Below, piece by piece: positions 98 to 60,648 of a DNA stretch of 60,648 nt. This stretch comes from a virus, in the IMG/VR virus record IMGVR_UViG_3300038424_000095, positions 1 to 60,648 of that record. One strand, 5' to 3'. Numbering within the stretch: the first letter of the stretch is position 1; each line of letters opens with the position of its first letter. The notes beneath the pieces were generated by a model. That model saw only the letters and a program-made list of their open reading frames with translations, did not search any database and had not been told where the DNA came from. Position numbers and translations under genes: made by a program.

Positions 98-324
98 ACC
101 TCAAAGCCGCCTACCTCTGCATCGACCGTGATTCTGTATGGGAGCCCCAAGGCCCCATCATCTCCTGCCCCCGCTGCACGTCCTCTATCTGCGTCCCTCT
201 GGCAGCGTGGGTGCCCACTCAGACGATGACCGACAAGGTATGCGTGAAGGTCGCCCAACCCGAGCCGCCGAAGAGGGGGAACAGGAGATTTATGCGGGCC
301 ATGAGAGAGCCGAGGGGGGTGTGA
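94..324 (+). CDS. Small zinc-ribbon protein, variant with one cysteine lost
   Basis: A 76-residue product. The second copy of this locus (60405) reads CIDC then CPRC, a four-cysteine zinc ribbon. Here codon 12 is CGT (Arg) instead of TGT, which breaks the first CxxC pair. This copy does read through a TGG codon that is TGA in the other copy, giving a C-terminal tail rich in basic residues. Its stop overlaps the next ATG (TGATG at 322-326). The segment around the second CxxC followed by PLAAW resembles short phage zinc-ribbon proteins that end in PL..W, so the TGG is probably ancestral. Function unknown; DNA or protein binding is a guess. Confidence 0.55.
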   Translation: MNLKAAYLCIDRDSVWEPQGPIISCPRCTSSICVPLAAWVPTQTMTDKVCVKVAQPEPPKRGNRRFMRAMREPRGV

Positions 325-512
325 TGTCGGATTTCAGCCCTGATGCCATAGCCCATTGCAGTGTTCACGGTCGCTTCTCAATCAACGATTCACCGGGGGG
401 ATGCCCGGACTGTCCGGAACCCGAGGAGGACTTTCTTTTGACGGATGAGGAGCTGGAGGCGTGCGAAGAGAGGGCAATCAAGGTCGTTGCACTCGAAATA
501 CTGGAGGCTTAA
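324..512 (+). CDS. Small acidic zinc-ribbon-like protein
   Basis: A 62-residue protein starting at the ATG that overlaps the upstream stop (TGATG). It has HCSVHG near residues 9-14 and CPDCPEPEE further on, so two cysteine/histidine pairs could hold a zinc ion. The rest is acidic and helical (TDEELEACEER). An upstream-extended frame from 138 exists but lacks a ribosome site and overlaps the previous gene. Unknown function; part of the rightward small-gene operon. Confidence 0.6.
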   Translation: MSDFSPDAIAHCSVHGRFSINDSPGGCPDCPEPEEDFLLTDEELEACEERAIKVVALEILEA

Positions 513-11883: not shown

Positions 11884-12360
11884 ATGTCTAACCAATACGT
11901 TATCACACCCAAACAACCAATCAAAGAAAGATTTGAAAATCTTATTTCCATGGAACCAACTACAGGATGTTGGTTGTGGATGGGGAGATGGGGCAAAACT
12001 GGGCTGTATGGACAATTCAAAATAGGGAGAAAAAACTGCAAAGCCCACCGAGTCGCATACGAGTTGTACGTTGAACCCATTGCTGAAGGGAAGTGTGTTC
12101 TTCACCATTGCGATACGCCGCCATGCTGCAACCCTAAGCATTTGTTCCTTGGCACTTCGAAAGACAACGTACATGACTGTATTAAAAAAGGAAGAAAACC
12201 AATAGGAGTAAATGCCTCTGGTGTAAAAATCACCGAGGAACAAGTAAGAGCGATACGGAAGGATACCGATTCTGAACACGTCATGGGATTGAAATACGGA
12301 ATTGCTGGATCTCATGCTGGAAGAATAAGAAGAGCGCAAGTGTGGAAGCATATTCAATAG
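11884..12360 (+). CDS. Free-standing HNH homing endonuclease
   Basis: A 158-residue protein on the plus strand between minus-strand genes; ATG follows GGAGGATCGA. GCWLWMGRWGKTGLYGQF then CVLHHCDTPPCCNPKHLFLG and NVHDCIKKGR is the HNH_3-type endonuclease pattern (His-His, Asn, His and cysteine pairs). The C-terminus (ITEEQVRAIRKD) resembles the DNA-binding helices that follow this domain in homing enzymes. It ends 7 bases inside the convergent β-helix gene. It is probably a mobile gene that inserted without breaking a neighbour. Confidence 0.85.
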   Translation: MSNQYVITPKQPIKERFENLISMEPTTGCWLWMGRWGKTGLYGQFKIGRKNCKAHRVAYELYVEPIAEGKCVLHHCDTPPCCNPKHLFLGTSKDNVHDCIKKGRKPIGVNASGVKITEEQVRAIRKDTDSEHVMGLKYGIAGSHAGRIRRAQVWKHIQ

Positions 12361-14936
12361 CCGCTCCCGTTTTGTATGTAGCCACTGCCGTATGTGTAGC
12401 CGTAGAAACCACCGAAGCCTACGCCGGAATTTAGAAATTCCCACGCGCCCATCGATGGCAAAGTACCTCCGGCATGAGTGGAATACCCTCCGTAGTCGGT
12501 CAATAAGCCCACTGAAGTGCCCTTCCATATCGCGGGGCTTCCTGGGCATAGCTTGAAATCTGCCGCCACGCTGTAACTCCCCGAGGGGTTGGTGAAGAGG
12601 GGATTGGCAGAAATGTTCCCATTCGATCCTGTCGGGTTTGTTCCCCCTGAGTAGTTCGCCGTGGTGTTTCCATACACATCGTTATTGTTGAAGGTGTAGT
12701 TCCAATTCGTCGCGTCCCTGACGCCATAGGCCGCGTTGTTGTAGACGATGTTGTTCTTGAACAAAATTCCGGTCTGCCCTGATCCGGTGTAGCCTCGGTT
12801 ATTTCCGTAAAGGTCGTTGTTGTAAATTGCCGCGCCGTTTCCACCCACGTTAAGCGAGATTCCAGATTCTCCCGCTACCGTATGGCCCGTTATGATGTTG
12901 TCGTAAATCTGTAAACCAGTGGCCCCAGCATTCTGAGTCTCGATGCCGTTGGCGGTGTTCCCGTGGATGTAATTCTGATAGATCGAGACGTTCGCCCCGC
13001 TGACCTGGATACCGTCGAGAGGACAAAGAGATATGTTGTTTTTGAAGATTGAAACAGTCGAGGCTCCTGGGACAATGGAAATACCGTGGCCTACTGGCCC
13101 AGACGCAGTGAGAGTGTTCCCAGAAACTGTGAGGCCGGTTCCTCCGAAATAAATTAAGTCCCCATTCCCGCCATTGGCGATCGAGTTATTTGTTATGCTC
13201 AGGGAAGTCGCAGCAGGAAAGTAAAGTGTGTCCGTTGCCACCCCGCATCCCGTGATCGTATTTCCAGTTATTGACCAGTTATTAACCGCATAGGTGGCTG
13301 TGCTGATAGCTGGCTGGACCGTATTCGATATGCTGTTGTTGCTGATCGTGACGTTAGCCACGGTGTCATTTGCTCTCACCGCATCGGTCATCACCCCATC
13401 AAAGGTGTTTCCGCTGATCGTGAGGCCAGAAGTAGCGGAGTCATAGGTGTAAACCCCGCTCCCGAGGTTCGTACCGTCAGAGCAATCATGGATATGATTG
13501 TTCTGGATAGTGTTATTGGTTGCGCCGCCATGCACGACGATGCAGCCGAAGCCGTCTTCTTTCGTCGAGTAGACATTATTTGAAATGTCCGAATTTTCGA
13601 TCAAGGCTCCCGCCGCCGTGTTGTAGATCGAGATTGGCGTAGTGACGAGGGAATTGTACGCGGTAACATTGTTAATCACACATCCCGATGTAGCGCCGGT
13701 GTAGCAACTTACGCAATGGCGGCGATGGTTTCCCGTCGAGAGGTTTTCGACTACCGTGTCTATTCCGGTGACGTTGATCCCGCCCATTGTCGCATCTGAG
13801 CCGCCCGTCCGAGTCGTGTCTATGCCGTTTATGACGAGATGGTCTTTATTGTTCGTGTCGATGCCCTGATCGACGTGGTAATGCTCATAGGTTTTGCTGT
13901 TCGTGGCTACGTTTGTTCCGTCCCAGGCATGGAGGTAAGTATTCGCTCCGTCCCAGTACCAACTCCCAGCGTTTGACTCTACCGCATTGATGGATGTCTG
14001 CTGGTTCATCCCGACGGTGTTTTCCCACACCCATCCTGGGGTAGAGGCCGCTGCGGCAGTGTAGGTGTAGGAGTAAGAGGCGCCTATGGCAATTATCTTG
14101 GAGACGCCGCCATTCGTGCCTAATGCCCCGTATCCGGTTGGCTGGGTCGTGGCCTGAGAGTCGTCACTGGCAACGCTCTTGTACCACATATTCACGCCGA
14201 TAGGAGCGCCGAAATTAGGATACGCGGAACTATAGGTCGTCGCCACGACCTGCGCGACGGCGTGGTCGAGAGCATAAGTGATCGTATCCGACTGCTTGCA
14301 GGTGTTCTTGGTAATCGTTGTCCCGCTGGCTCCCGAGTCCCATGTAACCCTAGTCATTGCCGAGGCGTTACTGTTTGTTCCCGTAGCCGGGCCGATGCCT
14401 ACGCCTACAAGGACGGCGTCATTACCTGCTGACGCACACAGTTCGACCTTGATTTGAGCGGCGCTTACGCTAAGGTGGGTGGTGTCGATCACAGTCCGAT
14501 AGCCGTAATAACTTCCTCCTCCAGCGTTGCTCACAGCGTAGGAATAGGTATTGACGTTGCCGGGATTGTAAAGCGTGTATCCGGAGGTTGAGAAGACTGA
14601 CGAGCCTATAATAAGAGGGTTTGCTCCAGTTGTTCCATATGCCCCAAAGGTTATCGGATGCCCCGTTGTGCCAGAAGAGGGAACGGTGAGTTGCTCTCTC
14701 CATGTATCGCCCCTGTTGAACAGGATTTGATCATCACCAGAGAAAGACGCGCCATTGACCTTGGCGATGGTCTGCCAAGGCCCCGTGGTCCCCGTCGTGT
14801 GGGCCTGCTGTGTCCCGTCGTAGGAATCATTACCGGCGTTCGCGACGTAGTACGTAGCCGCATTGGCCCATACGAGCCACCCGAGGACGATGGCGGATAG
14901 GAGGAAGCAGATGAGGGAGAAACGCTTTAAGCGCAT
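12354..14936 (-). CDS. Exported right-handed β-helix protein
   Basis: An 860-residue protein starting at the ATG after AAAGAGGTATTACT. Residues 1-26 are a Sec signal peptide (cleavage after ANA). The mature N-terminus ATYYVANAGNDSYDG is a typical opening of pectate-lyase-like parallel β-helix proteins, and many NNTIQNNHI, GLTISGNTF and VSISNNSI turns follow between residues 400 and 800. The C-terminal 25 residues are Gly/Tyr-rich. β-helix folds are common in tailspikes and polysaccharide lyases, but a signal peptide on a tailspike would send it to the periplasm. A secreted glycan-active or adhesive protein is equally possible. Confidence 0.75.
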   Translation of the reverse strand: MRLKRFSLICFLLSAIVLGWLVWANAATYYVANAGNDSYDGTQQAHTTGTTGPWQTIAKVNGASFSGDDQILFNRGDTWREQLTVPSSGTTGHPITFGAYGTTGANPLIIGSSVFSTSGYTLYNPGNVNTYSYAVSNAGGGSYYGYRTVIDTTHLSVSAAQIKVELCASAGNDAVLVGVGIGPATGTNSNASAMTRVTWDSGASGTTITKNTCKQSDTITYALDHAVAQVVATTYSSAYPNFGAPIGVNMWYKSVASDDSQATTQPTGYGALGTNGGVSKIIAIGASYSYTYTAAAASTPGWVWENTVGMNQQTSINAVESNAGSWYWDGANTYLHAWDGTNVATNSKTYEHYHVDQGIDTNNKDHLVINGIDTTRTGGSDATMGGINVTGIDTVVENLSTGNHRRHCVSCYTGATSGCVINNVTAYNSLVTTPISIYNTAAGALIENSDISNNVYSTKEDGFGCIVVHGGATNNTIQNNHIHDCSDGTNLGSGVYTYDSATSGLTISGNTFDGVMTDAVRANDTVANVTISNNSISNTVQPAISTATYAVNNWSITGNTITGCGVATDTLYFPAATSLSITNNSIANGGNGDLIYFGGTGLTVSGNTLTASGPVGHGISIVPGASTVSIFKNNISLCPLDGIQVSGANVSIYQNYIHGNTANGIETQNAGATGLQIYDNIITGHTVAGESGISLNVGGNGAAIYNNDLYGNNRGYTGSGQTGILFKNNIVYNNAAYGVRDATNWNYTFNNNDVYGNTTANYSGGTNPTGSNGNISANPLFTNPSGSYSVAADFKLCPGSPAIWKGTSVGLLTDYGGYSTHAGGTLPSMGAWEFLNSGVGFGGFYGYTYGSGYIQNGSGY

Positions 14937-15865
14937 AGTAATACCTCTTTGTCGGAATAGATAATTGCGGCCCACACGACGCTTATCAGTGCTAGCGGTA
15001 GGATATGCCAAGTAAAGAACGGCACGGCAGATACACAAGCAAGTGCAAGGCCCCACAGAGGTATCCGATCGATGCCTTGTAGTCCACGCCGAATGGTACG
15101 GTAAAGGGTCCACAGGAATAGGGCGATTCCCACGATCCCGAACCGCCAAGCAATCTCGACATATTCATTGTGAGCTTCCAGGAAAAGGTTGTTGTTCTGA
15201 GCGTTATAGAATTGAAAAAGGTGGAAACATTGCCCGAACCACAGGGCCTTTCCCATATCGTGAATGGTGAAGGACCACGCAGCCCACCTGCCCGAGATGT
15301 GCTCAATGACACCGTAATGCTGTGAGGAATTTACAAGAGGAGAAGCCAGGATAAGCCCACCTATGCAAATGGGAATAAGAAGTTGCCACCTTCTCTTTCT
15401 GAAGAATGCCGGAAGACATATCATGTAGAGCGCAAAGGTCTCGTCCACGTTGCTCATGAGTCCGACCAGTTGTCCATTAGTCGGATGGATAAGAAAGGAG
15501 ACGTGAAAATACTGCAAGGCCTGAAATACGATATTCAGCCCCGCGATAAGGATAAGGGCGTCATAAATGAGCCCCTTGAAGGCCCACCAGTGAGGCGCCG
15601 TCATGACTATGAAGAGGAAGAAAACCGACAGGGCCACTATTGTCGAGAGGATCGTGATGTTTATTCCCCTGAGCGTCTCGTAACAGGTATAGAGAAGCAA
15701 AGCCCCTATGGACCAGCTTACGGAGAACAAGGCAATGAGTCCGGAAGCGGCGAGGAAGATGAATTGCATATTCCCGAACCGTTGGACGCGAGGATCTACG
15801 CCGTTCGGTAGAACGAGTACGCATCCGAGAACGAGAATAAAGACAATGATGAGAACGGGCTTCAA
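14927..15865 (-). CDS. O-antigen ligase/polymerase-like membrane protein
   Basis: A 312-residue protein starting at TTG after GAGGGAAAC. It has about nine hydrophobic segments. Residues near 230-255 read EAHNEYVEIAWRFGIVGIALF, the HNEY..E...GI.G signature of the Wzy_C family (O-antigen ligase WaaL and polymerase Wzy). It is shorter than the usual 400 or more residues and lacks part of the N-terminal helices. In prophages such proteins change the surface polysaccharide and block superinfection. It overlaps the exported β-helix gene by 10 bases, so a coordinated surface-altering role is plausible. Confidence 0.72.
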   Translation of the reverse strand: MKPVLIIVFILVLGCVLVLPNGVDPRVQRFGNMQFIFLAASGLIALFSVSWSIGALLLYTCYETLRGINITILSTIVALSVFFLFIVMTAPHWWAFKGLIYDALILIAGLNIVFQALQYFHVSFLIHPTNGQLVGLMSNVDETFALYMICLPAFFRKRRWQLLIPICIGGLILASPLVNSSQHYGVIEHISGRWAAWSFTIHDMGKALWFGQCFHLFQFYNAQNNNLFLEAHNEYVEIAWRFGIVGIALFLWTLYRTIRRGLQGIDRIPLWGLALACVSAVPFFTWHILPLALISVVWAAIIYSDKEVLLCA

Positions 15866-19300: not shown

Positions 19301-22300
19301 TGGCTTCCATCTTCGTTCATCGCTTCGATGAGAGACTTGCCCCGGTCCATGACATGAAGAACCGATTCCGACGCGCGAGTAATTGCCACGCGTTCTATGG
19401 AGTACATGAGCTTTTCGCCAGTAATCGGACTAACCTTCGTGTTCCCGTATCCCCTGGAGAGCTTGTAGACTTTCTCCAAATCCTCTCGGGTCACTTCGGG
19501 GCGTCCAGTCATATCGGAGGTATCGTGATAGGTGACGGGTGCCCACCCTTCTGACGTGTCGACCTTCGTCTCCCCGACCTTCGCTCCCCACTGTTTGGCA
19601 TACTTGTTCATGAAGGCAGGGAGCATGGTATCGTAGAAGCCCTTCATGCCCTCGCCGCCGACTTTTAGGTCGAGACCGGAAAGGGATTTCAGCTTCATCC
19701 CGTCTTCGTCCATAACGGACTTGCCTTCACTGGCGGCTATCTTGTCGGCTATTTCCTTGCCGAAGAGGTCGGAGACTCTCTTGATGTCGACATTGTCCTC
19801 GTGGAGAACCACGTCGCCGTCTTTTATTGCTCTTACCCAATACTGATCATCCCCGTAGTCGTCGTACTGAATTCTGTCGATTTGCTTGGAGAGATCATAC
19901 CGTTCTGCCTGCTGCTCGCCTGTTGTGAAGGCTATCCGATCATACCCATTCTCCGAGGCCCAGCGTAGCATCCGCTTCATGACGAGTTCCGGCCAGGTCT
20001 TTGAGAAGGGGGCGGGGGGGACAGTCTGTGCGGCATAAAGATTATTTCCCGTCTGCTCTACATTCTCCCGTTTTGGCCCAGAGGCATAGAGATGGCCTTC
20101 TTCATCTAGGGCCATGAACATTTTGGTTCCTATCGGGCGTCCGCTTATCTCTGCAGCCTCTTCGCTATCAATGGTGTACTCTTCTATTCTGAGTGGCTTT
20201 GTGTAGCCCTTCTTCTTGCCCTCCTGGTGCCAGTCGCTCTGCACTTCTTCGATGAAGAGGACTTTCTTACCGTCAGCGTCTACCCGATCATTGAAACGGA
20301 CGTGGGCCAGGACGTTGGGTTCGTCCCAATGAGGTGAGGCGTACTTGCCTTCATAAATGTTACTTTTCTGAAGCCTTCCCTGTTCTGCCCATAGTCTCTG
20401 TTCCTCTGCGCCTACTTCTGATGCGGGTAGATTTCGAATCTCTTCTAGTCTTGCCCTTATTTCAGTGAGACGGCCCTCCTTGCTCTTTACGCCGGTGTCT
20501 TCTTTGCTTGGCAGCGTAAACAGCATCTCCCGGTAGTTCTCGCCCATGGGAAGGGTGTAGGCGGAAAACTTGGTGGGCGACTGCTTTGTTTCGTTCCTAT
20601 CCTCGTAAGCCGCCCTCAATTCTTTTGCCAAAGGCTCTAACGTACTGCTGAGTTCGTTTGGTGTCCTATCTCCTCTTGCGATGTCTAGGGCGGTATCGCG
20701 CGCTCCGCTATCTGTAAAATGCTCATTCTGGGCTTGCCTAATGAAAGCCTGTTCTGCTTTTTGGAGTCGTTCCTGTCCTTCTCCCCCCTTCACCACTTCC
20801 TTCATCTGCACCTGGTTCTCTTTGAGGAAGTCCGCGATCTCGCCCTTCGTGACCTTGCCCGTCCTGCCATCAAGCCAAGGAACCAGTCCCGACCACTTCA
20901 GTTCGTCCGCCTTGTACTCGCCCTTGTTCGCCCACGATTCAATGAGGGTTCGATAGCTCTCGGGCGTGCCCGTGCCGGGGAGCTTGGCGTCGAGGACTCG
21001 GGACATTTTGGAGTAGAAGGTGGGAGCGATGTCCTTCGCACCTGCGTTAAACACAGGCGGTCCTTTTGATCCCGTCCTGCCACCTGTCTTCTTGTATTCA
21101 ATGAGAGCCTTGTCTACCGCGCTCTTTACGGCTTTTGGATCGGTGGTCATGCTTTCAAGTTCACGACCGGCAGCGAACTGAGCTATCAAATCGCCCATGA
21201 CTCTTGTTCTCTGCGATTCCAACATACCAGTGCCTTCGTAGTCCGCCTGGAGTTTTTTCTTATAGATGTCGAGGTTTCTAAGATAGGGCTTTACTTCTTC
21301 CAAAAGTGGTTCATAAATGTCCGGCCTGCTATGTTGTAGAGTATGCATGATCTCATGCTGTGCCGTTGCCGCGACATCACGGGCGTTAGTGTTGAGATAG
21401 AGGACTGTCGGTTCTTGAGGAAGAGTGAATCCGCCTATCTTTATGGCCGATTCCGAGCCATCGAAAAAGTATGCATCAATGCCGTACGATTTCGCATCGG
21501 TAGCTATTTTTCGGTGTTCTGCGGTGAGTTCGACGGGGATTTTGACGTGATCCTGGACGAATCCCTCAAGATGCGTCCCCAAAATCTCCTGGACTTTTTT
21601 GATTGCAGAGCTGTATCGTTCGGATAGTAACGTATTCCGCTCTGTGACGTCAGGCAGATTATTCTCGGTTCTTCCTTCATTACCCTCCTCCTCTATACTG
21701 AATGTTGGCGGTTCCTTGCGTCTCGGCTTCAGCCTCTCCCCTATCTGTTCGGCGGTCTGCTTCTCCTCTCCGAGAGCAAGGCGGCCACCTCTGACTTCTG
21801 GTTCGCTAAAGGTAAGTTGGTGGATAGGCTGGTTGCCGGCGAGAACTTGCTTGACTTCTTCTTCTGATTTTGATACTCTTTCTTTGTTATGCCTAATCTC
21901 CTTTGTAGTACTTGTGGAACCGTAATTAACCGCGCCCCGTGCTTGATCAGAGGAAGCAAGACTGGATTCTTCTTCTGTTCCCGGTTGTGCAAAACTACTT
22001 TTTTCAACCACAAGATCAGGATGGATTGCCTCACTTGCGGCAAGGGGTTCTACGTTTCTCCCTCTACCCTCGATAATGGAAGAGGGAGGTTCTGTAGTAA
22101 AACCTGCTATGCGATTAATCAAGCTACTGGCCGTATTAATTCCAAGGGATACCGTTTTATCAGGGTTGACGGTAAGAGCGTTGCCGAGCACAGAATCGTC
22201 ATGGAACGTCATCTTGGTAGGCGACTTCACAGAAGTGAGGTGATCCACCACATTGACGGGAACAGACTCAATAACGAAATCTCTAACCTTCGGATCATGA

Positions 22301-24771
22301 AGTGCATTGATCACAGCGCCCATCATAATTCGTTGGCTTGGGACATCGAGACCGCCAAAGCCCTTTTGAAGGAAGGTGCTACTTTGCGAGAGGTCTCTGA
22401 TGTTCTGCACGTCTGCGGGACCAGTATTGGAGCTGCCTTGAGACGTAGAGGCGTTACCCTCCGTCTCTTGAGAGGATACAAGCGCACTAGCGGGTAGCTT
22501 CGCCTCTGAGGGGCCGCCAGTCGTTTTTTGGGGTGTGGTGGGGATGGTAGGCTTAGGGGCACCCGCCGGCTCCTCTTCCGCTGGCTTCTGGCTGGCCTCC
22601 TTTATGCCTGCTTCGATTGGAGCCGTGGGTTCCCCTAAAGGCTGCATGGCAGGAGTCAACGGGGCCATCCCGAGGGGTGCCATCGGAGCCTCCACCGGCA
22701 CCGTCAACGGCAGTTCCGCTATCCGGTCGATGATCTCCTTGTTGGCGACATCGGGCGGGAGCCCCTTGCTTCCCACGTCCGCGATGATAGCCTCTGGTGA
22801 GCTGTTCCTAATAGCCTCGTGGGCCTGGATGAACTGGTCGAGGGCGGTAACGGATGGAGCATGAGCCTGGGGACTCGCGGCGTACTGGTCGCGTACTGCC
22901 CGGATATGATCTAGGGTAGTCTCCCCTCTTTCAAGCCCCCTGGTGGCTTGGTCAAAGAATGAAGGGGGAAGAGGGGTGCCGCCCACCGCTGAAGGACCGG
23001 CAGCCGGAGAAGGAGGAGTCGCGGGAGGCGGGCCCTCTTCCGAAGTTGGTCTGGTTTCTGGCATTCCTGGTGTCTGTCTCGGATATGTCGAAACGCCTTC
23101 AACCGCCCCCTTAAGTTCGAAGGGAACAACCTTAGGCTGTCCTGCCGCTGCAACCTGAGTGTCGCTGTAAGGTGGAACGTGAATGGCACTCTTTATCTTT
23201 CTCCACCAGGGACGGTCGGCCACCGTAACGGCCTTTTCAACGGGCATCTCTATCCATGTACCGCCGATGAGGTCTTGGCGCATCTGTGGGCCTGAGCGTC
23301 CAAGTGCCCCGTAGAGTTCTTTTTCTTCGGCGGTAGCCTCTTGTCCGGCCCCGAGGATGTCGTGAATCTTGGCGGGGTCAAGAAATACTCTCCGAGGCAT
23401 GTTGTACTGCTCGAAGGTCTTTGTCGTTGCGGCTTCAAAGGCTTTCTGCGATCCTCCATGCACCTTGCCAGCCGCCCATATCTGACCCATGAAGTCAACG
23501 GCATCAAGGACCGAAGCCTGCCATCCCTCGGCATCATTGATGTCAGCAAGACCACGGCCTCCTCCAAAAGTGTAGGGCTTGCCGCTGATCTTAGATGCGG
23601 CGAAGTTCTCAGCTTCTGCGGCGCCCATGAAGGTCCCAAAACCAGCCGCACCCTTCAGGACATCCTTTGCCATCTGAATCTTCGAGGGAGCACCACCGAG
23701 AATCTCTTTCGCTATGCCGGATCTTGCCAAGTCAAATGCTGTGTTCACTGCACCGGCCGCTTCCTCCGCCGACATACCTGCCTGGACTATGCCGGCCCCT
23801 TCCCGGGCCGCTCCTGCCAAAGCTGAAATACCAGTTCCTGCGCCATATATAGCCGCTGTCGGTGCCATGAGAGGCAGCCAGAACGCCATCATGTACGGGT
23901 TGTTTATGATCTCTTTCCCCGTGGGCGTACCGCGGAGTCCGAGTTGCTTGGTGATCGCGTCGAAGTTGTCATAGATAGCATCAGAGGGGACCTGGACATG
24001 GTTAGCCTGGAGAATCTTCGAGACTTCTGCCGCCCTGTCAGCAACCGGCCAGGAAGGTTCTGCCCCTTTAGATACATAGAGATTGAAAGAGTTCACATCA
24101 TCGTGGTATTGCTTGGCCTTCTGATTAAAGGTCTCTACCTTTGTGTTGAAGGCATCTACCGATGTCTGAGAAGTCCTGTCTACCTTCTCCTGAGATGCTT
24201 TGAGGTCATCGTAAAGAGCCTGGACCTGCTTGCCCTGAATCTCAAGGGTATTACTTTTGGCGGAGAGGTCTTTCCCCCTTGCGAGAAACTCTCCTTCTCT
24301 GGGTGTCGCCTCAGGTGCTTCTGGCGCCCTCATGGTAAAAGGCACTCTCGCCATGTCCACATGCTCTGCGGGGTGCGCGAGTTCCTCCACTATTCGGTGA
24401 TCTGGAGGAGGAGCATTCGCCTCTTCTTCGAAGCGGTGTGCGATGTTGAGGGCAGCCTGAGCTTTCACAGGATCAGGATGGTGAACGACAGTCCCTATAC
24501 TTGGCTTTCCTAACCAGTCCGTTGTGATGAAAGGCTTCATAGTGCTGATTACATCAGGTTCAGGTTGACCGAGGCGGGCCGGGCGGACAGCAGCAAGTTC
24601 CTCTTCGGTAGCGGCAGGAGGAAGGGCTATTTTGACCGGAGCCTTGACGACAGGCGGTTTCTCTGCCGCCGCGAACTCCTCGTCGCTTATGACCCTGAAG
24701 CCCTTACTGACAGGTTGCTCTTGCTTCTGCGCCTGTTCAATCTCGTCATCGCTGATTACAACGTAGGGCAT
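16315..24771 (-). CDS. Giant polyvalent ejection-type virion protein (2818 aa)
   Basis: Opens with two copies of a VISD(D/E)E motif (residues 4-11 and 25-33), then coiled coil (about 165-250) and Ala/Gly-rich hydrophobic segments (about 290-335). HEIMH at residues 1139-1143 is a zinc-metalloprotease motif. FIEEVQSDWHQEGKKKGY near 1506, then RIAFTTGEQQAERYDLSKQ, is typical of large polyvalent proteins that phages and plasmids deliver into cells. The C-terminal quarter (GRDFYGKRMGTMELVKDILSSW) matches the ends of podovirus internal virion proteins. Residues 759-961 are encoded antisense to an HNH gene and form a low-complexity linker. It probably enters the host with the DNA. The start overlaps the previous stop (TAATG). 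Confidence 0.78.
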   Translation of the reverse strand: MPYVVISDDEIEQAQKQEQPVSKGFRVISDEEFAAAEKPPVVKAPVKIALPPAATEEELAAVRPARLGQPEPDVISTMKPFITTDWLGKPSIGTVVHHPDPVKAQAALNIAHRFEEEANAPPPDHRIVEELAHPAEHVDMARVPFTMRAPEAPEATPREGEFLARGKDLSAKSNTLEIQGKQVQALYDDLKASQEKVDRTSQTSVDAFNTKVETFNQKAKQYHDDVNSFNLYVSKGAEPSWPVADRAAEVSKILQANHVQVPSDAIYDNFDAITKQLGLRGTPTGKEIINNPYMMAFWLPLMAPTAAIYGAGTGISALAGAAREGAGIVQAGMSAEEAAGAVNTAFDLARSGIAKEILGGAPSKIQMAKDVLKGAAGFGTFMGAAEAENFAASKISGKPYTFGGGRGLADINDAEGWQASVLDAVDFMGQIWAAGKVHGGSQKAFEAATTKTFEQYNMPRRVFLDPAKIHDILGAGQEATAEEKELYGALGRSGPQMRQDLIGGTWIEMPVEKAVTVADRPWWRKIKSAIHVPPYSDTQVAAAGQPKVVPFELKGAVEGVSTYPRQTPGMPETRPTSEEGPPPATPPSPAAGPSAVGGTPLPPSFFDQATRGLERGETTLDHIRAVRDQYAASPQAHAPSVTALDQFIQAHEAIRNSSPEAIIADVGSKGLPPDVANKEIIDRIAELPLTVPVEAPMAPLGMAPLTPAMQPLGEPTAPIEAGIKEASQKPAEEEPAGAPKPTIPTTPQKTTGGPSEAKLPASALVSSQETEGNASTSQGSSNTGPADVQNIRDLSQSSTFLQKGFGGLDVPSQRIMMGAVINALHDPKVRDFVIESVPVNVVDHLTSVKSPTKMTFHDDSVLGNALTVNPDKTVSLGINTASSLINRIAGFTTEPPSSIIEGRGRNVEPLAASEAIHPDLVVEKSSFAQPGTEEESSLASSDQARGAVNYGSTSTTKEIRHNKERVSKSEEEVKQVLAGNQPIHQLTFSEPEVRGGRLALGEEKQTAEQIGERLKPRRKEPPTFSIEEEGNEGRTENNLPDVTERNTLLSERYSSAIKKVQEILGTHLEGFVQDHVKIPVELTAEHRKIATDAKSYGIDAYFFDGSESAIKIGGFTLPQEPTVLYLNTNARDVAATAQHEIMHTLQHSRPDIYEPLLEEVKPYLRNLDIYKKKLQADYEGTGMLESQRTRVMGDLIAQFAAGRELESMTTDPKAVKSAVDKALIEYKKTGGRTGSKGPPVFNAGAKDIAPTFYSKMSRVLDAKLPGTGTPESYRTLIESWANKGEYKADELKWSGLVPWLDGRTGKVTKGEIADFLKENQVQMKEVVKGGEGQERLQKAEQAFIRQAQNEHFTDSGARDTALDIARGDRTPNELSSTLEPLAKELRAAYEDRNETKQSPTKFSAYTLPMGENYREMLFTLPSKEDTGVKSKEGRLTEIRARLEEIRNLPASEVGAEEQRLWAEQGRLQKSNIYEGKYASPHWDEPNVLAHVRFNDRVDADGKKVLFIEEVQSDWHQEGKKKGYTKPLRIEEYTIDSEEAAEISGRPIGTKMFMALDEEGHLYASGPKRENVEQTGNNLYAAQTVPPAPFSKTWPELVMKRMLRWASENGYDRIAFTTGEQQAERYDLSKQIDRIQYDDYGDDQYWVRAIKDGDVVLHEDNVDIKRVSDLFGKEIADKIAASEGKSVMDEDGMKLKSLSGLDLKVGGEGMKGFYDTMLPAFMNKYAKQWGAKVGETKVDTSEGWAPVTYHDTSDMTGRPEVTREDLEKVYKLSRGYGNTKVSPITGEKLMYSIERVAITRASESVLHVMDRGKSLIEAMNEDGSQDLAEILGLEVAEGVPEKKLTAVHSLDITPSMKQDVLYKGQPRFSIQESLDAIKEAGNDAKAAYPHLEKIATHVYQEGARTWKDFLDRMKEVLGDLYKRFMFSMKKVFEAAKKAYAESPLANERGEVVLKDKDLPPLLQDFLDNIGKEREAEKGPERPKTFFSPVIEPVKTALNDLKEAYKKPPVSTESKRIIGRYTGALQRLEWQLTKLAKQINAEIPEKRQVAISNYIEAGGDNATLQAWADDSKAPYKQGYLDAMKLTPEEHAWAEKCSQDMQDTWQAANDSGLEIDYVENYVRHQWKDKPEKAGKKIISQINAGVFKTNPREALHRIWANYHEGEKLGYDPTDKRIGYQVVAHERSIREAMLARQALKELMASTEADGRPTVVVGGMGEPIQKTSYAVMRGDKDRAFRVFDSKDEAEKFIEGNKTTPMFGEKVPSIGDHIVERDNSAFAVKPNVKGKDWYDDQGREIYRPLDHPALRKWKWLGNDVNGHPVLMQGNMRIHRDAFGRLNALLGKSKIQTFEIPAKVPVVGGWQPGRTALHGGAFIKGTILIGPFHQFHLGEHAVFHKVNPFVAPEIDFDTRPLLREGVDHGLMLYSGKAMQEFAEGMASGGLWNRIPLVGDALKHYQEWLFQDYIPRLKALMFEHAVGRALKYYAKDMASGKFTRDQLLDNAAKQANAAFGELNYKYLGRNPTLQDVLRIGLLAPDFLEARLKFFAQAARPKGKEQFMALLRGAIIMATAAQVTNMLIGDDHKTHWNRPFSVMVGGREYTPRSVVGDMMHLVTDPRGFWYHRINPLWGRPLVEVATGRDFYGKRMGTMELVKDILSSWVPIPGQGLLKSNTGETTLGKIVNGLLGSVGISNYKYMSDFEKYAQNLEGPSFPSTDKSKLKSKLTQAVKENDPTANAQIRQAIRKHKLTPSDMESIHEKAKEPPAVAAAKRITLEQLATGIDKATPEEKKAIKPIFYNKFSNAVEKNELTKDEIEKYRKILRTM
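21889..22497 (+). CDS. HNH endonuclease gene nested antisense in giant gene
   Basis: A 202-residue protein. Two FCS/MYM-like zinc fingers (CSTCG...FCSRLC and CLTCG...FCSKTC) are followed by EHRIVMERHLGRRLHRSEVIHHIDG and NRLNNEISNLR, a textbook HNH domain of phage homing endonucleases, then helical DNA-binding segments. It lies fully inside the 2818-residue minus-strand gene with codons in exact register. Its 19 Leu and 15 Ser codons include no TTA, CTA or TCA, so the opposite strand stays open. No plus-strand ribosome site is visible before the ATG because that stretch is pyrimidine-rich; TTGACT-N15-GATACT upstream is a weak promoter candidate. Confidence 0.8.
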   Translation: MPNLLCSTCGTVINRAPCLIRGSKTGFFFCSRLCKTTFFNHKIRMDCLTCGKGFYVSPSTLDNGRGRFCSKTCYAINQATGRINSKGYRFIRVDGKSVAEHRIVMERHLGRRLHRSEVIHHIDGNRLNNEISNLRIMKCIDHSAHHNSLAWDIETAKALLKEGATLREVSDVLHVCGTSIGAALRRRGVTLRLLRGYKRTSG

Positions 24772-25637
24772 TATGGCTCCCTAAAGGACCATGAAACGCA
24801 ATTGCAAAGGCCGCCCATCATAGAAAGATACCGACAGTCGATCATCACCACAGCATGATTTGGGAAGAGGTTGTCGACTATCTGTCTCGCTCTTGCATCC
24901 TTCGGCAATCCAAAAGCCGGAAGAAGAATCACGTTTTCAGTTTGTAGCCAGTTGCAGAAATACCCCCATCCAGGAGAGTACGCATCCGCGTCTGGCCAAA
25001 TCTGTCTAAAGGCCGCCTCTGGCATGTCCCAGTCCCATGAGTCAAAAGCGTACGTGAAACGAAACGTGTTGAAATTGGCCTTCTCAAGGGTCTTTTCGAG
25101 GTCTCGCTGATATTTCCTGAAGCGATCATCCTTGTCGAAAACGCAAGAGTAGTCATTCACGATGAGCGTATTGTGGTTCACAAATCGGCAAATGCCGTCG
25201 CTGTGCCCGAGTTCATCGCCGGGTTCCACAGGAATGAGGATCACTGGACATCCGAGGGCTTGTTCAAGAGCTTCTTGGGATCCAGCGCCGTTGTCATGGA
25301 TGAACTTCTCGGTAACGATTGCCTTGCCATATCCCATGACGCAGTTGCCGCCATCGAGAATCAATGGAGACTCCAGAAGGTTGGGCACCCACCGCCAGCA
25401 TTCCTCGGCAACCTTGAGTTGAGGCCATCTATCCCAGTCGTTTGGTGTCTTGGCATACTGAAACTTCACGAAATGATCCCCTACCTGAACCGGCATGTAG
25501 TCTCTTGACCAAACATTTCGAGTTCCGTTGAACGTGCGCACCTTCACGCCATAGGCTTCAAGGTTAAGTTTGGCAGCCCAGAACACGTCCTTATGGTTGT
25601 GAGCGAACCATTCGTTGAAGTAAACGACGTCTTTCAT
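24771..25637 (-). CDS. Agmatine deiminase / peptidyl-arginine deiminase-like protein
   Basis: A 288-residue protein of the pentein fold. WSRDYMPVQ (43-51), LDGG (94-97), GHSDG (144-148) and GGLCNC with candidate nucleophile Cys280 match the PAD_porph/agmatine-deiminase family, where Asp, His and Cys act on a guanidino group and release ammonia or urea. Length is slightly below the usual 330-370. The start overlaps the upstream stop by ATGA and the end overlaps the giant gene by TAATG. Possible substrates are free agmatine (towards putrescine) or arginine side chains of host proteins. Such a gene among phage ejection genes is unusual. Confidence 0.82.
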   Translation of the reverse strand: MKDVVYFNEWFAHNHKDVFWAAKLNLEAYGVKVRTFNGTRNVWSRDYMPVQVGDHFVKFQYAKTPNDWDRWPQLKVAEECWRWVPNLLESPLILDGGNCVMGYGKAIVTEKFIHDNGAGSQEALEQALGCPVILIPVEPGDELGHSDGICRFVNHNTLIVNDYSCVFDKDDRFRKYQRDLEKTLEKANFNTFRFTYAFDSWDWDMPEAAFRQIWPDADAYSPGWGYFCNWLQTENVILLPAFGLPKDARARQIVDNLFPNHAVVMIDCRYLSMMGGLCNCVSWSFREP

Positions 25638-26371
25638 GCTTGACTCATCCTCTCAACTTTCACGATAGGGTCAATCCCACCTTCGACATGGTACACCTTC
25701 CCGTCATTGGGAATGAGTGATTGGAACTTGATCCTATTCTTTGCAACAAGGGGAATGATCAGATCTGCTTGGCTCCCTTGCCTGACAAGGCTGATTTTCT
25801 CCCCTTGGGTATAGAAGTTTCCCGAGGGACCAAACATGCAGACAACATCAATTTCGAAGTCCCCGGTCAGAAGCAGGTGCATATGTTGATTGATTCTCGG
25901 ACAAACGATCTTGCATTTCATTCGCTCGTTATAAAGGGCGTACTGCATCGCATTGATGTTCACCTTGATTCGGTCAAGGATAGCTTTCTCTATCGGGCGC
26001 ATGGAGAGATTCGTTACCTTCAGGGAAGGCATTTTTTCATAGAAGAGGAAACCGCTCACGGGCGCGTGCTGAACATGAATGTCGATACATGTCATGAATA
26101 TCCCGATGACGAGACAGTCTTCTTTAACTTCTTCCCGCAGAAGGGTGTTCACGCTGTACGTCCCGCCCTTCACATTGATGATCTCCTCGTTCGGCCCGAC
26201 TACCTTGTTGTAGATAACAAAGCCATCGGCCGGCGCGTATACCACATTCATGTCATAGTAGATCGGGCGTATCGGATCCCTGGACAATTCCCGTTCAAGG
26301 ATCTGCCGCGGCGGCATCTCCGTGAGTTTCTTTGTTTCCGGCATCTGAAGAAAGGCGTTAAGCTCTTTCAT
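25634..26371 (-). CDS. Phosphatidylserine decarboxylase-like pyruvoyl enzyme
   Basis: A 245-residue protein; the ATG at 26371 overlaps the upstream stop (ATGA) and is preferred to 26410. Family hallmarks are RDPIRP, APADG (46-50), VKGGTYSVNTLL, DIHVQHAP (97-104, compare DYHRVHSP), NER (148-150), QGE and a final GSQ (199-201) at the place of the G-S-T/S/R self-cleavage site. In this family Ser200 would become the pyruvoyl group. Phosphatidylserine decarboxylase makes phosphatidylethanolamine at the membrane, but no membrane anchor is seen, so another amino-acid-like substrate is possible. It sits between two guanidino-modifying-type genes. Confidence 0.75.
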   Translation of the reverse strand: MKELNAFLQMPETKKLTEMPPRQILERELSRDPIRPIYYDMNVVYAPADGFVIYNKVVGPNEEIINVKGGTYSVNTLLREEVKEDCLVIGIFMTCIDIHVQHAPVSGFLFYEKMPSLKVTNLSMRPIEKAILDRIKVNINAMQYALYNERMKCKIVCPRINQHMHLLLTGDFEIDVVCMFGPSGNFYTQGEKISLVRQGSQADLIIPLVAKNRIKFQSLIPNDGKVYHVEGGIDPIVKVERMSQA

Positions 26372-27312
26372 GACGGGTACGGTACTCCGTTTAAAGGCAA
26401 ACAACAGCAACTCAAAGCTGCCCCGGAAGCCCCTATCTCGCTCAAGTCTATGAAAATTGGTGTCAATCCTGCGTCCATGACGATCTTTTCAAACTCTTCG
26501 TTCTTCCTCTTCTCCTTCTCATAATCCTCATCACTACGCTTCAATTCCGATATGTCCGTCATGGTGTAGACGATTGACCCAATGCGCTGGTTATTGGTCA
26601 CAGACATTTGCGCCGCTTCCTTGCTTACCGGGATGATTTCCGCGACTTTCTCTATCTCTTTGACCGTGGCCCTGTCCTGGCCATCGGTCGCGAACATGAC
26701 TTTGTCCTTCGAAAGAGGGAATATTGAACAATCGAGGTGATAGCGCTTCTGATCTCGTTCTTCGATCTTGATTACCCGGGCATCGAACTTCTGCGCTATC
26801 CAGTCGAGGGCCTCGGGTACGCTGCGCTGTCCATACCCTCCGAAGTAGATGTTATCCCGAAGCCAAAGGAACTCGGCCTTACCCTCGAAGAAGTACGGAG
26901 GGGTAAACTGCTTGTAGCCTGCGATGTCGAGGAACTTACTGAGTTCCTTCTCTTCACCCGGTCGCCCCTCTGCTTTGAATTTGGCGAGCACGAATGTCTT
27001 GTCCAGGTGCGGAAGGCATACCCCGGCATTGGAGATATACATCTGGTCCTGAAGGCCCCTCTTAGGCGGAAGGAGATAGACGAAAGCGTCCTGAGCAAAG
27101 AGGCCGGCCATCTCAAAAAACTGCGCCATGGCCTTATCGACATTGATCTTTCGTTCCTTCTCAGGAAGTTTTTTCATAAAGACGTTGTTCGCGATGTCGG
27201 CCCGGAGGTACTCCGGCGGACAGAGGAGCAGTTTCAGGTATGCATCCTGTGTCTGAACCTTCAACGACTCCTGGCCCTTCAGCTCTTCATCCCCTATCAC
27301 CCTGTAAGCCAT
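26368..27312 (-). CDS. DDAH/amidinotransferase-superfamily protein with ejection-type N-tag
   Basis: A 314-residue protein. After an N-terminal extension (AYRVIGDEEL) the family pattern runs in order: CPPEYL, GLQDQMYISNAG (about 86-97), FEGKAEFLW (142-150), GGYGQRS (158-164), YHLD with catalytic-type His192, and a C-terminal SCCCLPLN with candidate nucleophile Cys302-304. The GD of the usual EGxGD is AE here. Family enzymes hydrolyse or transfer the amidino group of arginine derivatives. The extension matches the N-terminus of the giant protein encoded three genes downstream, which hints that it is packaged and delivered too. Substrate unknown. Confidence 0.82.
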   Translation of the reverse strand: MAYRVIGDEELKGQESLKVQTQDAYLKLLLCPPEYLRADIANNVFMKKLPEKERKINVDKAMAQFFEMAGLFAQDAFVYLLPPKRGLQDQMYISNAGVCLPHLDKTFVLAKFKAEGRPGEEKELSKFLDIAGYKQFTPPYFFEGKAEFLWLRDNIYFGGYGQRSVPEALDWIAQKFDARVIKIEERDQKRYHLDCSIFPLSKDKVMFATDGQDRATVKEIEKVAEIIPVSKEAAQMSVTNNQRIGSIVYTMTDISELKRSDEDYEKEKRKNEEFEKIVMDAGLTPIFIDLSEIGASGAALSCCCLPLNGVPYPS

Positions 27313-48977: not shown

Positions 48978-49152
48978 GTTTCTCCTCCTTGGCAAATTGC
49001 CTCTGTTTCTCCCTGGTCCCTCTGCCGTGACAAGCCACGCACCGCTTGGTTCCACGGCGCACGCCAGGCTCAAACCCTGAGCCGCCGCAACGCGTGCATT
49101 TGATCTTGAAGAAGTTCTGAATAATCCAGAGAAGGCCGTATTCGTGGGTCAT
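48967..49152 (-). CDS. Zinc-finger protein (DnaJ-type CxxCxGxG pair)
   Basis: A 61-residue protein; the ATG at 49152 overlaps the previous TGA (TGATG). CTRCGGSGFEPG and CVACHGRGTRE form two CxxC...G.G motifs like a DnaJ zinc module. The C-terminus is basic and helical. Function unknown, perhaps assembly chaperone-like, which is speculation. Confidence 0.62.
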   Translation of the reverse strand: MTHEYGLLWIIQNFFKIKCTRCGGSGFEPGVRRGTKRCVACHGRGTREKQRQFAKEEKHVA

Positions 49153-49562
49153 CAATGCACCACTCTTTTATGCGCAATCAAGCCAGCATTGCTTTTGCAT
49201 GGCTTCCCGCATTCGTCACAGGTCCATAGTGCCGAGGAGGGGGCTGTCTTACCAGCACCACTTGAGGGTGTCATGGCGTCGCCCCCTCCTTCTATCGGCA
49301 CTCCCTTACCTTCTGGCAGGGGCTTCACTTCGAATCTCCCTTCCTTGGTCATCACCGCATCTTCCTCGGTAAAATTTGAGTGGCAAACAGGACATAGCAT
49401 CTCTCCAAACCGTCTTGTAGCATCCAGCTCAAAAGGTGGTGGGAAGCCATTTTGTGGTCTTGGACTATAAAACATGCTGCCATCAAGAGGAAGATGTAAT
49501 TTGTCGGTATCAACATTCGCAGCCCACTCTCCGCAAGCCACGCAAAGAGCTTTGGTAATCAT
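49152..49562 (-). CDS. Zinc-binding protein with C-terminal C2H2 finger
   Basis: A 136-residue protein; ATG at 49562 overlaps the upstream stop (ATGA). N-terminal CVACG and CPVCH pairs are separated by a KLHLPLDGSMFYSP segment. The C-terminus has CDECGKPCKSNAGLIAHKRVVH in a C-x2-C-x12-H-x4-H spacing, a C2H2-type finger unusual for a phage. Possible DNA binding. It lies in the portal-terminase interval. Confidence 0.68.
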   Translation of the reverse strand: MITKALCVACGEWAANVDTDKLHLPLDGSMFYSPRPQNGFPPPFELDATRRFGEMLCPVCHSNFTEEDAVMTKEGRFEVKPLPEGKGVPIEGGGDAMTPSSGAGKTAPSSALWTCDECGKPCKSNAGLIAHKRVVH

Positions 49563-49708
49563 GATGCCCACCGTACTGTTTGTCTAGGCTTGCTTATAAC
49601 ATCTTCTGGAGACCATCCCCTTTGTATGCGATTATCCATCCCAACTCTTCCTACAGTGCTTGGTCCTATAATGTCTCCAACGCTATATGTCAGCGTTATT
49701 TTCCCCAT
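49559..49708 (-). CDS. 49-residue hypothetical protein
   Basis: ATG overlaps the previous TGA (TGATG) and the stop overlaps the next ATG (ATGA). VGDIIGPSTVGRVGMDNRIQRGWSPEDVISKP resembles the short R...GWSPE.A...P DNA-binding motif seen in phage endonuclease C-termini. May be a DNA-binding remnant. Confidence 0.5.
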   Translation of the reverse strand: MGKITLTYSVGDIIGPSTVGRVGMDNRIQRGWSPEDVISKPRQTVRWAS

Positions 49709-60521: not shown

Positions 60522-60634
60522 GTGCCCACTCAGACGATGACCGACAAGGTATGCGTGAAGGTCGCCCAACCCGAGCCGCCGAAGAGGGGGAACAGGAGAT
60601 TTATGCGGGCCATGAGAGAGCCGAGGGGGGTGTG

Positions 60635-60648
60635 ATGTCGGATTTCAG
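60635..60648 (+). CDS. Start of the 324-512 gene, cut by the window end
   Basis: ATGTCGGATTTCAG repeats the first codons of the acidic zinc-ribbon-like gene at 324. The gene continues at the window start because the genome is circular. Confidence 0.6.

What the first reader, a model, noticed from the sequence alone, without database searches (positions are those of the whole stretch)
24771..27312. Three-gene enzyme cassette: two pentein-type proteins around a pyruvoyl decarboxylase-like protein
A DDAH/amidinotransferase-like protein, a PSD-like protein and an agmatine-deiminase-like protein are encoded by overlapping genes (ATGA, ATGA, TAATG) directly upstream of a giant ejection-type protein. 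Catalytic-type residues are visible in each (His192 and Cys302-304; GS at 199-200; Cys280). Two ideas fit: virion-delivered enzymes that alter host arginine residues or lipids, or a route to polyamines for DNA packaging. Such a set in a phage structural operon is new to me.
Basis: partly seen in the sequence, partly recalled or inferred. Interest (0 to 1): 0.92.

Follow-up and report, generated by a model that had tools for sequence, protein, structure and literature searches.

The report
Phage three-gene arginine-to-diamine enzyme module
A phage carries three overlapping genes for small-molecule enzymes that most likely turn the amino acid arginine into a DNA-binding diamine such as putrescine; the first two genes recur as a pair in dozens of other phages and in several bacterial phyla, where databases label them separately as a lipid enzyme and an amidinotransferase.

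Summary
The three genes are real, intact and overlapping as described. Gene 1 is not a DDAH in its active site: sequence, fold and residues match the cyanobacterial arginine dihydrolases ArgZ/AgrE. Gene 2 is a PSD-superfamily pyruvoyl decarboxylase without the membrane-binding N-terminus, and the PSD-family tryptophan decarboxylase PsiD is among its structural matches. Gene 3 is an agmatine-deiminase/PAD_porph protein with its catalytic residues.

The set is not unique. Genes 1 and 2 form a tight pair in about 50 distinct viral loci, often between the T4-type major capsid gene and PhoH. The pair also occurs, in reversed order, in Verrucomicrobiota, Latescibacterota, Sulfurimonas, Xenorhabdus, Saccharothrix and others, usually beside an exporter and in Verrucomicrobiales beside a PotD/PotF-like polyamine-binding protein. 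All three genes cluster together in the window and at least six other phage lineages.

Best reading: a soluble metabolic module, arginine to ornithine to putrescine, with gene 3 acting on agmatine. Virion delivery is not excluded for this phage, because gene 1 and the giant protein share an N-terminal motif. Enzyme activities are inferred, not shown.

The parts
26368..27312 (-). Gene 1 (P0001), ArgZ/AgrE-like arginine dihydrolase candidate; D89, N95, R117, E143, R163, H192, D194, N240, C302
   Evidence: phmmer to ArgZ/AgrE 1e-16; profile 2e-35, only ArgZ/AgrE found; AF2 pLDDT 91.5; Foldseek top 13 all ArgZ/AgrE; residues invariant in 91 of 91 viral loci
27247..27312 (-). Disordered N-terminal tail of gene 1 (residues 1-22) with motif YRVIGDEE, shared with the giant protein's N-terminus
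   Evidence: residues 1-22 pLDDT < 50; motif found only here and at residues 3 and 25 of the giant protein in six frames
25634..26371 (-). Gene 2 (P0010), PSD-superfamily pyruvoyl decarboxylase candidate; D49, H99, H102, G199-S200 self-cleavage site
   Evidence: Pfam PF02666 1.5e-16; AF2 pLDDT 90.2; Foldseek E. coli PSD 1.2e-6 and PsiD 1.2e-3; residue conservation
24771..25637 (-). Gene 3 (P0003), agmatine deiminase / PAD_porph family; D46, D95, H145, D147, C280
   Evidence: Pfam PF04371 1.8e-20; profile to solved agmatine deiminases 1e-9 to 1e-15; catalytic residues invariant in 10 phage sequences
16315..24771 (-). Giant 2818-aa ORF starting at the stop codon of gene 3; context, and carrier of the shared N-terminal motif

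Best explanation
The three genes are a late-expressed, soluble metabolic module that converts the cell's arginine into a diamine during virion assembly. Gene 1 (ArgZ-like) hydrolyses free L-arginine to L-ornithine, ammonia and CO2. Gene 2 (PSD-fold, self-cleaving at Gly199-Ser200 to a pyruvoyl enzyme) decarboxylates the ornithine to putrescine. Gene 3 (agmatine deiminase-like) draws in agmatine, for example host-made, towards N-carbamoylputrescine. The likely use is charge neutralisation of DNA during packaging and support of late translation. Shown here: families, folds, catalytic residues, operon structure and conserved gene linkage. Inferred: all three substrates, the order of steps, the product and its use.
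For: Gene 1: the profile of 35 relatives finds only ArgZ/AgrE in the PDB (2e-35) and Foldseek ranks ArgZ/AgrE first (2.5e-23). By alignment and residue spacing it has the residues that bind the alpha-amine (D89) and alpha-carboxylate (R117, R163) of arginine in ADI/DDAH, as described in PMC11659421, plus the E143-H192-C302 triad and the ADI-type Asp194; all are invariant in 91 of 91 viral loci. Asn95 equals Asn71 of ArgZ, whose mutant traps an intermediate (title of 6juz). Gene 2: PSD fold, nucleophile Ser200 and Asp49 invariant, hydrophilic N-terminus (max 19-aa hydropathy -0.32), and the amino-acid decarboxylase PsiD is a structural match (PsiD family in PMC12603985). Linkage: genes 1 and 2 adjacent in nearly all viral and bacterial loci; opposite gene order in bacteria and permuted trio order in L216 show that the linkage was kept through rearrangement. 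Polyamine link: PotD/PotF-like protein beside the pair in Verrucomicrobiales (2e-53), where mostly one Orn/DAP/Arg decarboxylase-family protein remains. Packaging link: a gp23-type capsid gene within three genes upstream in 72 of 92 viral loci and PhoH downstream in 66.
Against: No activity is shown and substrate specificity of a PSD fold cannot be read from sequence. Eleven of 26 bacterial genomes with the pair also have SpeA above cut-off, so there the pair is not the only route from arginine. Pair neighbours in bacteria are often MATE or ABC exporters, which would also fit an exported specialised amine. The NCBIfam dimethylargininase (Mtb) model scores gene 1 slightly higher (93.9 bits) than the arginine dihydrolase model (85.3), both far below cut-off. 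No spermidine synthase or AdoMetDC occurs in the pair-carrying virus records searched, so the phages would stop at the diamine. Gene 3 is missing from most pair genomes.
Confidence: 0.5

Rival explanations
1. Arginine decarboxylase variant: gene 2 decarboxylates arginine to agmatine, gene 3 deiminates agmatine to N-carbamoylputrescine, and gene 1 works in parallel on arginine or on the carbamoyl intermediate.
For: Gene 3 belongs to the agmatine deiminase family and is part of the operon in at least seven phage lineages; agmatine would have to come from somewhere.
Against: The conserved pair lacks gene 3 in most genomes, so gene 1, which has carboxylate-binding arginines, more likely supplies gene 2 than follows it.
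Confidence: 0.2
2. The pair makes another arginine-derived amine (for example an exported specialised metabolite in bacteria) or serves to deplete arginine or release ammonia, not to make polyamines.
For: MATE or ABC exporter next to the pair in most bacterial loci; SpeA present in 11 of 26 of those genomes; one PSD relative (L103) sits beside an amidinotransferase-like gene.
Against: Phages keep the two enzymes without any exporter seen beside them, next to capsid or replication genes; PotD/PotF-like protein beside the pair in Verrucomicrobiales.
Confidence: 0.15
3. Virion-delivered effectors: the proteins are packaged and ejected with the giant protein and modify host protein arginines or lipids.
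For: Gene 1 and the giant protein share the N-terminal motif YxVI(G/S)DxE, expected by chance 0.00015 times per shuffled gene 1; trio abuts very large ORFs also in L214, L216 and L220.
Against: The motif is absent from gene 1 of other trio phages (L023; no match by inspection in L024) and no virion-protein family in IMG/VR was seen to begin with it; homologues lie in replication clusters and bacterial genomes; active sites fit free arginine; gene 2 lacks a membrane segment.
Confidence: 0.07
4. Supply of ornithine and a DNA-bound decarboxylation step for a hypermodified thymine such as putrescinylthymine.
For: Known chemistry in other phages (own knowledge) needs ornithine and a decarboxylase.
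Against: No HMUDK_hel match in 23 pair genomes (but its control also stayed silent); no thymidylate synthase/dUMP hydroxymethylase family member in 19 of 23, including the window.
Confidence: 0.03

Closest known systems
ArgZ (Sll1336) / AgrE (Alr4995) arginine dihydrolase domain of cyanobacteria
   Same: Fold, catalytic Cys/His/Glu, Asn71 equivalent, arginine-binding residues
   Different: 22-25% identity; no ornithine cyclodeaminase domain; family-specific C-terminus SGAxLSC and a helical insert; below the NCBIfam arginine dihydrolase cut-off
Phosphatidylserine decarboxylase (E. coli PSD) and PsiD tryptophan decarboxylase
   Same: PSD fold, Asp49, His99, Gly199-Ser200
   Different: Short hydrophilic N-terminus; the second His of DxHxxH is Arg in nearly all relatives (His102 kept in the window); linked to an arginine enzyme; low TM-score (about 0.45)
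Agmatine deiminase / PAD_porph family
   Same: W-RD, HxD and Cys motifs
   Different: Shorter protein, Asp95 in place of the usual Glu of LEGG; below NCBIfam AguA cut-off; in phages found almost only with gene 1 and/or gene 2
Phage-encoded polyamine enzymes (Li et al. 2023, PMC9992855)
   Same: Viral genes feeding putrescine or agmatine synthesis, including pyruvoyl ODC/ADC derived from AdoMetDC
   Different: That survey does not mention PSD-type decarboxylases or arginine dihydrolases, reports no arginase in phage and no agmatine deiminase outside chloroviruses
Campylobacter Fletchervirus 'amidinotransferase' and 'phosphatidylserine decarboxylase' genes
   Same: Homologues of genes 1 and 2 (35% and 30%) present together in about 39 phages
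   Different: In NCTC12673 the two genes are about 42 kb apart and annotated separately

Membership tests
Arginine dihydrolase (ArgZ/AgrE) | Pentein fold with Cys/His/Glu catalytic residues | tested here: met
   Foldseek 2.5e-23; C302, H192, E143 in 91/91 viral loci
Arginine dihydrolase (ArgZ/AgrE) | Asn in place of the guanidine-binding Asp (Asn71) | tested here: met
   N95 in 91/91 viral and 29/30 bacterial sequences; 6juz N71S trapped intermediate
Arginine dihydrolase (ArgZ/AgrE) | NCBIfam curated cut-off (NF052232, 450 bits) | tested here: not met
   85.3 bits
Arginine dihydrolase (ArgZ/AgrE) | Arginine to ornithine, ammonia and CO2 | not testable with these tools
   needs enzyme assay
DDAH (dimethylargininase) | Lys two residues after the catalytic His | tested here: not met
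   Asp194 as in ADI, invariant
DDAH (dimethylargininase) | NCBIfam cut-off (NF045659, 300 bits) | tested here: not met
   93.9 bits
PSD superfamily (PF02666) | Pfam gathering score | tested here: met
   61.1 bits against 22
PSD superfamily (PF02666) | Gly-Ser self-cleavage site and catalytic Asp/His | tested here: met
   G199-S200, D49, H99 in 90/90 viral loci
Canonical phosphatidylserine decarboxylase | Second His of the DxHxxH motif | tested here: inconclusive
   His102 in the window, but Arg in 86/90 viral and 34/34 bacterial relatives
Canonical phosphatidylserine decarboxylase | Membrane-binding hydrophobic N-terminus | tested here: not met
   46 residues before PADG, max hydropathy -0.32
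Canonical phosphatidylserine decarboxylase | NCBIfam equivalog cut-offs | tested here: not met
   all far below cut-off
Agmatine deiminase / PAD_porph (PF04371) | Pfam gathering score | tested here: met
   73.9 bits against 25
Agmatine deiminase / PAD_porph (PF04371) | Catalytic Cys, HxD and RD motifs | tested here: met
   D46, H145, D147, C280 invariant
Agmatine deiminase / PAD_porph (PF04371) | AguA equivalog cut-off (TIGR03380) | tested here: not met
   33.9 bits against 381.8

The most novel reading that the evidence does not exclude
A previously unrecognised two-enzyme putrescine pathway, arginine dihydrolase plus a PSD-fold amino-acid decarboxylase, shared by bacteria of several phyla and by tailed phages that keep it beside their capsid genes, with a third agmatine-acting gene added in one phage group.
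Probability: 0.4. Interest if true: 0.85.

Novelty: new variant of a known kind. Interest (0 to 1): 0.7.

Why it matters
If the substrates are as inferred, a gene commonly annotated as a phage lipid enzyme is an amino-acid decarboxylase, and many phages carry a complete short route from arginine to a diamine, timed with capsid assembly. It would add a new enzyme class to polyamine synthesis and correct annotations: a 2024 ocean survey read viral psd genes as lipid metabolism (PMC11360552), although whether those belong to this family was not tested. It would also make the old question of where phages get polyamines for packaging testable with two genes.

Tried and rejected
Single-protein scans of IMG/VR with genes 1 and 3 found nothing; profiles were needed. 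The giant protein found no IMG/VR relatives and only partial phage matches. The shared N-terminal motif was searched across IMG/VR as a possible general virion tag: no virion-protein family was seen to begin with it. A defence-system reading was tested against PADLOC: no match. Base hypermodification was tested and found unsupported. Downstream polyamine enzymes (spermidine synthase, AdoMetDC) were sought in the phages and not found. The ArgZ structure paper itself is not in the library, so ArgZ mechanism details rest on PDB titles and own knowledge.
Full report
Observation. The three ORFs lie on the minus strand exactly as described, with ATGA, ATGA and TAATG junctions, purine-rich start regions at least for gene 3 and the giant ORF, and intact reading frames. 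The window is a virus record. Identified features include TerL, portal and major capsid protein, an integrase, and an O-antigen-ligase-like and a beta-helix protein. It is most likely a temperate tailed phage whose late operon runs on the minus strand.

Gene 1. It has no Pfam match but matches the solved arginine dihydrolases ArgZ and AgrE at 1e-16. A profile of 35 relatives finds only these in the PDB, at 2e-35. The AlphaFold model (pLDDT 91.5) has ArgZ/AgrE as its first 13 PDB matches, then DDAH, amidinotransferases and ADI. PMC11659421 names the residues in ADI/DDAH that hold the alpha-amine, the alpha-carboxylate and the guanidine. By alignment and by residue spacing these correspond to D89, R117, R163, D194 and N95. 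All are invariant in 91 viral loci and nearly so in 30 bacterial loci, together with E143, H192, N240 and C302. The residue two after the catalytic His is ADI-type Asp, not DDAH-type Lys. Position 95 is Asn as in ArgZ (Asn71), not Asp. Free arginine is therefore the likely substrate and the dihydrolase reaction the likely chemistry. This is inference from residues.

Gene 2. Pfam PS_Dcarbxylase 1.5e-16. The model (pLDDT 90.2) matches E. coli PSD and then PsiD, a PSD-family tryptophan decarboxylase (family statement), with modest TM-scores of about 0.45. Asp49, His99 and Gly199-Ser200 are invariant in viral relatives. The second His of the PSD motif is Arg in 86 of 90 viral and 34 of 34 bacterial relatives, though the window keeps His. 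The N-terminus is short and hydrophilic, unlike the membrane-binding part of PSD (PSD architecture from own knowledge). It works like a pyruvoyl decarboxylase, but membership among canonical PS decarboxylases is not supported.

Gene 3. PAD_porph 1.8e-20, with solved agmatine deiminases and peptidyl-arginine-deiminase-family proteins as relatives. The catalytic Asp46, His145, Asp147 and Cys280 are invariant in ten phage homologues. The Glu of LEGG is Asp95.

Distribution. Homologues of genes 1 and 2 are in Campylobacter Fletcherviruses, about 42 kb apart in NCTC12673, and adjacent in Bacteroides phages such as DAC16. In IMG/VR, 137 relatives of gene 1 were confirmed and 80 kept. Nearly all have gene 2 immediately downstream, usually with a one-base overlap; about 50 are distinct at the threshold used. 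In 72 of 92 viral loci a gp23-type capsid protein lies within three genes upstream (56 immediately) and in 66 PhoH lies downstream. These loci are not deduplicated. In other phages the pair lies in a DNA polymerase, dCTP deaminase and IMPDH cluster. In bacteria the order is reversed and a MATE or ABC exporter usually follows. In Verrucomicrobiales a PotD/PotF-like polyamine-binding protein is close by (2e-53).

The trio. It is present with all three genes in the window, L024, L023/L025, L211, L214, L220 and L216, the last with order gene 1 - gene 3 - gene 2. Partial forms occur in L212, L215 and L217. Among annotated phages, 6 of the 7 records with a gene 3 homologue also have genes 1 and 2; the seventh is an unverified contig that does not look like a phage. 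PAD_porph is found in 5 of 34 pair-carrying virus records.

Function. Gene 1 on arginine and gene 2 on its product is the simplest pathway that explains why these two travel together across phyla and phages, through order changes. The product would be putrescine if gene 1 is a dihydrolase, or N-carbamoylputrescine if it stops at citrulline. Gene 3 would bring in agmatine. Support for polyamines: PotD/PotF neighbours; in the Verrucomicrobiales genomes mostly one Orn/DAP/Arg-decarboxylase-family protein remains and SpeA does not reach its cut-off; and placement next to capsid genes. Against: 11 of 26 bacterial genomes have SpeA, and exporters suggest other products.

Virion delivery. The motif YxVI(G/S)DxE occurs at residue 3 of gene 1 and at residue 3 of the giant protein, with a variant (FRVISDEE) at residue 25, and nowhere else in six frames. 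It lies in a disordered tail of gene 1. It is absent from the trio of L023, was not seen in L024, and is not a general virion tag. It is a lead for this phage only.

Known or new. The polyamine survey of viruses (PMC9992855) mentions neither PSD-type nor ArgZ-type enzymes, and states that no arginase in phage and no agmatine deiminase outside chloroviruses were found. AdoMetDC-derived pyruvoyl ODC/ADC in phages are the closest precedent (PMC10407285). An ocean survey reads viral psd as lipid metabolism (PMC11360552). Literature searches found no paper that links the two genes, within an open-access library only. The finding is a new variant of phage-encoded polyamine metabolism, not a categorically new system, pending biochemistry.

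Noticed in passing
window 211-337 and 60522-60648: The last 127 bases repeat bases 211-337 exactly, as expected for a k=127 assembly overlap: the genome is probably complete and circularly permuted, about 60.3 kb, with a spurious first 210 bases.
   Followed up: partly
window 21889-22497 (+): A 202-aa HNH endonuclease ORF (HNH_3, 3.4e-10) with CxxC motifs lies wholly inside and antisense to the giant gene, which stays open through it; it looks like a homing-endonuclease insertion that kept the host frame open.
   Followed up: partly
window 27306, 24765 and 24699 (minus strand): N-terminal motif YxVI(G/S)DxE shared by gene 1 and, twice, by the giant protein; unexplained, possibly virion targeting.
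   Followed up: yes
L104-L137 (bacterial loci): Bacterial PSD-ArgZ pairs next to MATE exporters (many phyla), an ABC exporter (Xenorhabdus/Photorhabdus) or a PotD/PotF-like protein (Verrucomicrobiales); the exported compound is unknown.
   Followed up: partly
L136 610-2438: In Photorhabdus tasmaniensis the PSD-like gene is split by a transposase-like ORF.
   Followed up: no
window 26066-26068 (gene 2, H102): The His of the PSD self-processing motif is Arg in nearly all relatives but His in this phage; how the relatives self-cleave is open.
   Followed up: partly
window 14927-15865 and 12354-15149 (-): O-antigen-ligase-like (Wzy_C) and right-handed beta-helix proteins just downstream of the giant gene: candidates for lysogenic surface conversion.
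   Followed up: no
window 49152-49571 (-): A phage protein ending in a C2H2 zinc finger (zf-C2H2, 1.5e-5), near the TerL gene.
   Followed up: no
L103 598-2431: In a KSB1 bacterium the PSD-like gene overlaps an amidinotransferase-like gene (identified by eye) instead of the ArgZ-like one.
   Followed up: no
L214, L216, L220: In three other phages the trio follows very large ORFs (1400-1540 aa, open at the contig edge) that are not clearly alike to the window's giant protein by BLAST.
   Followed up: partly
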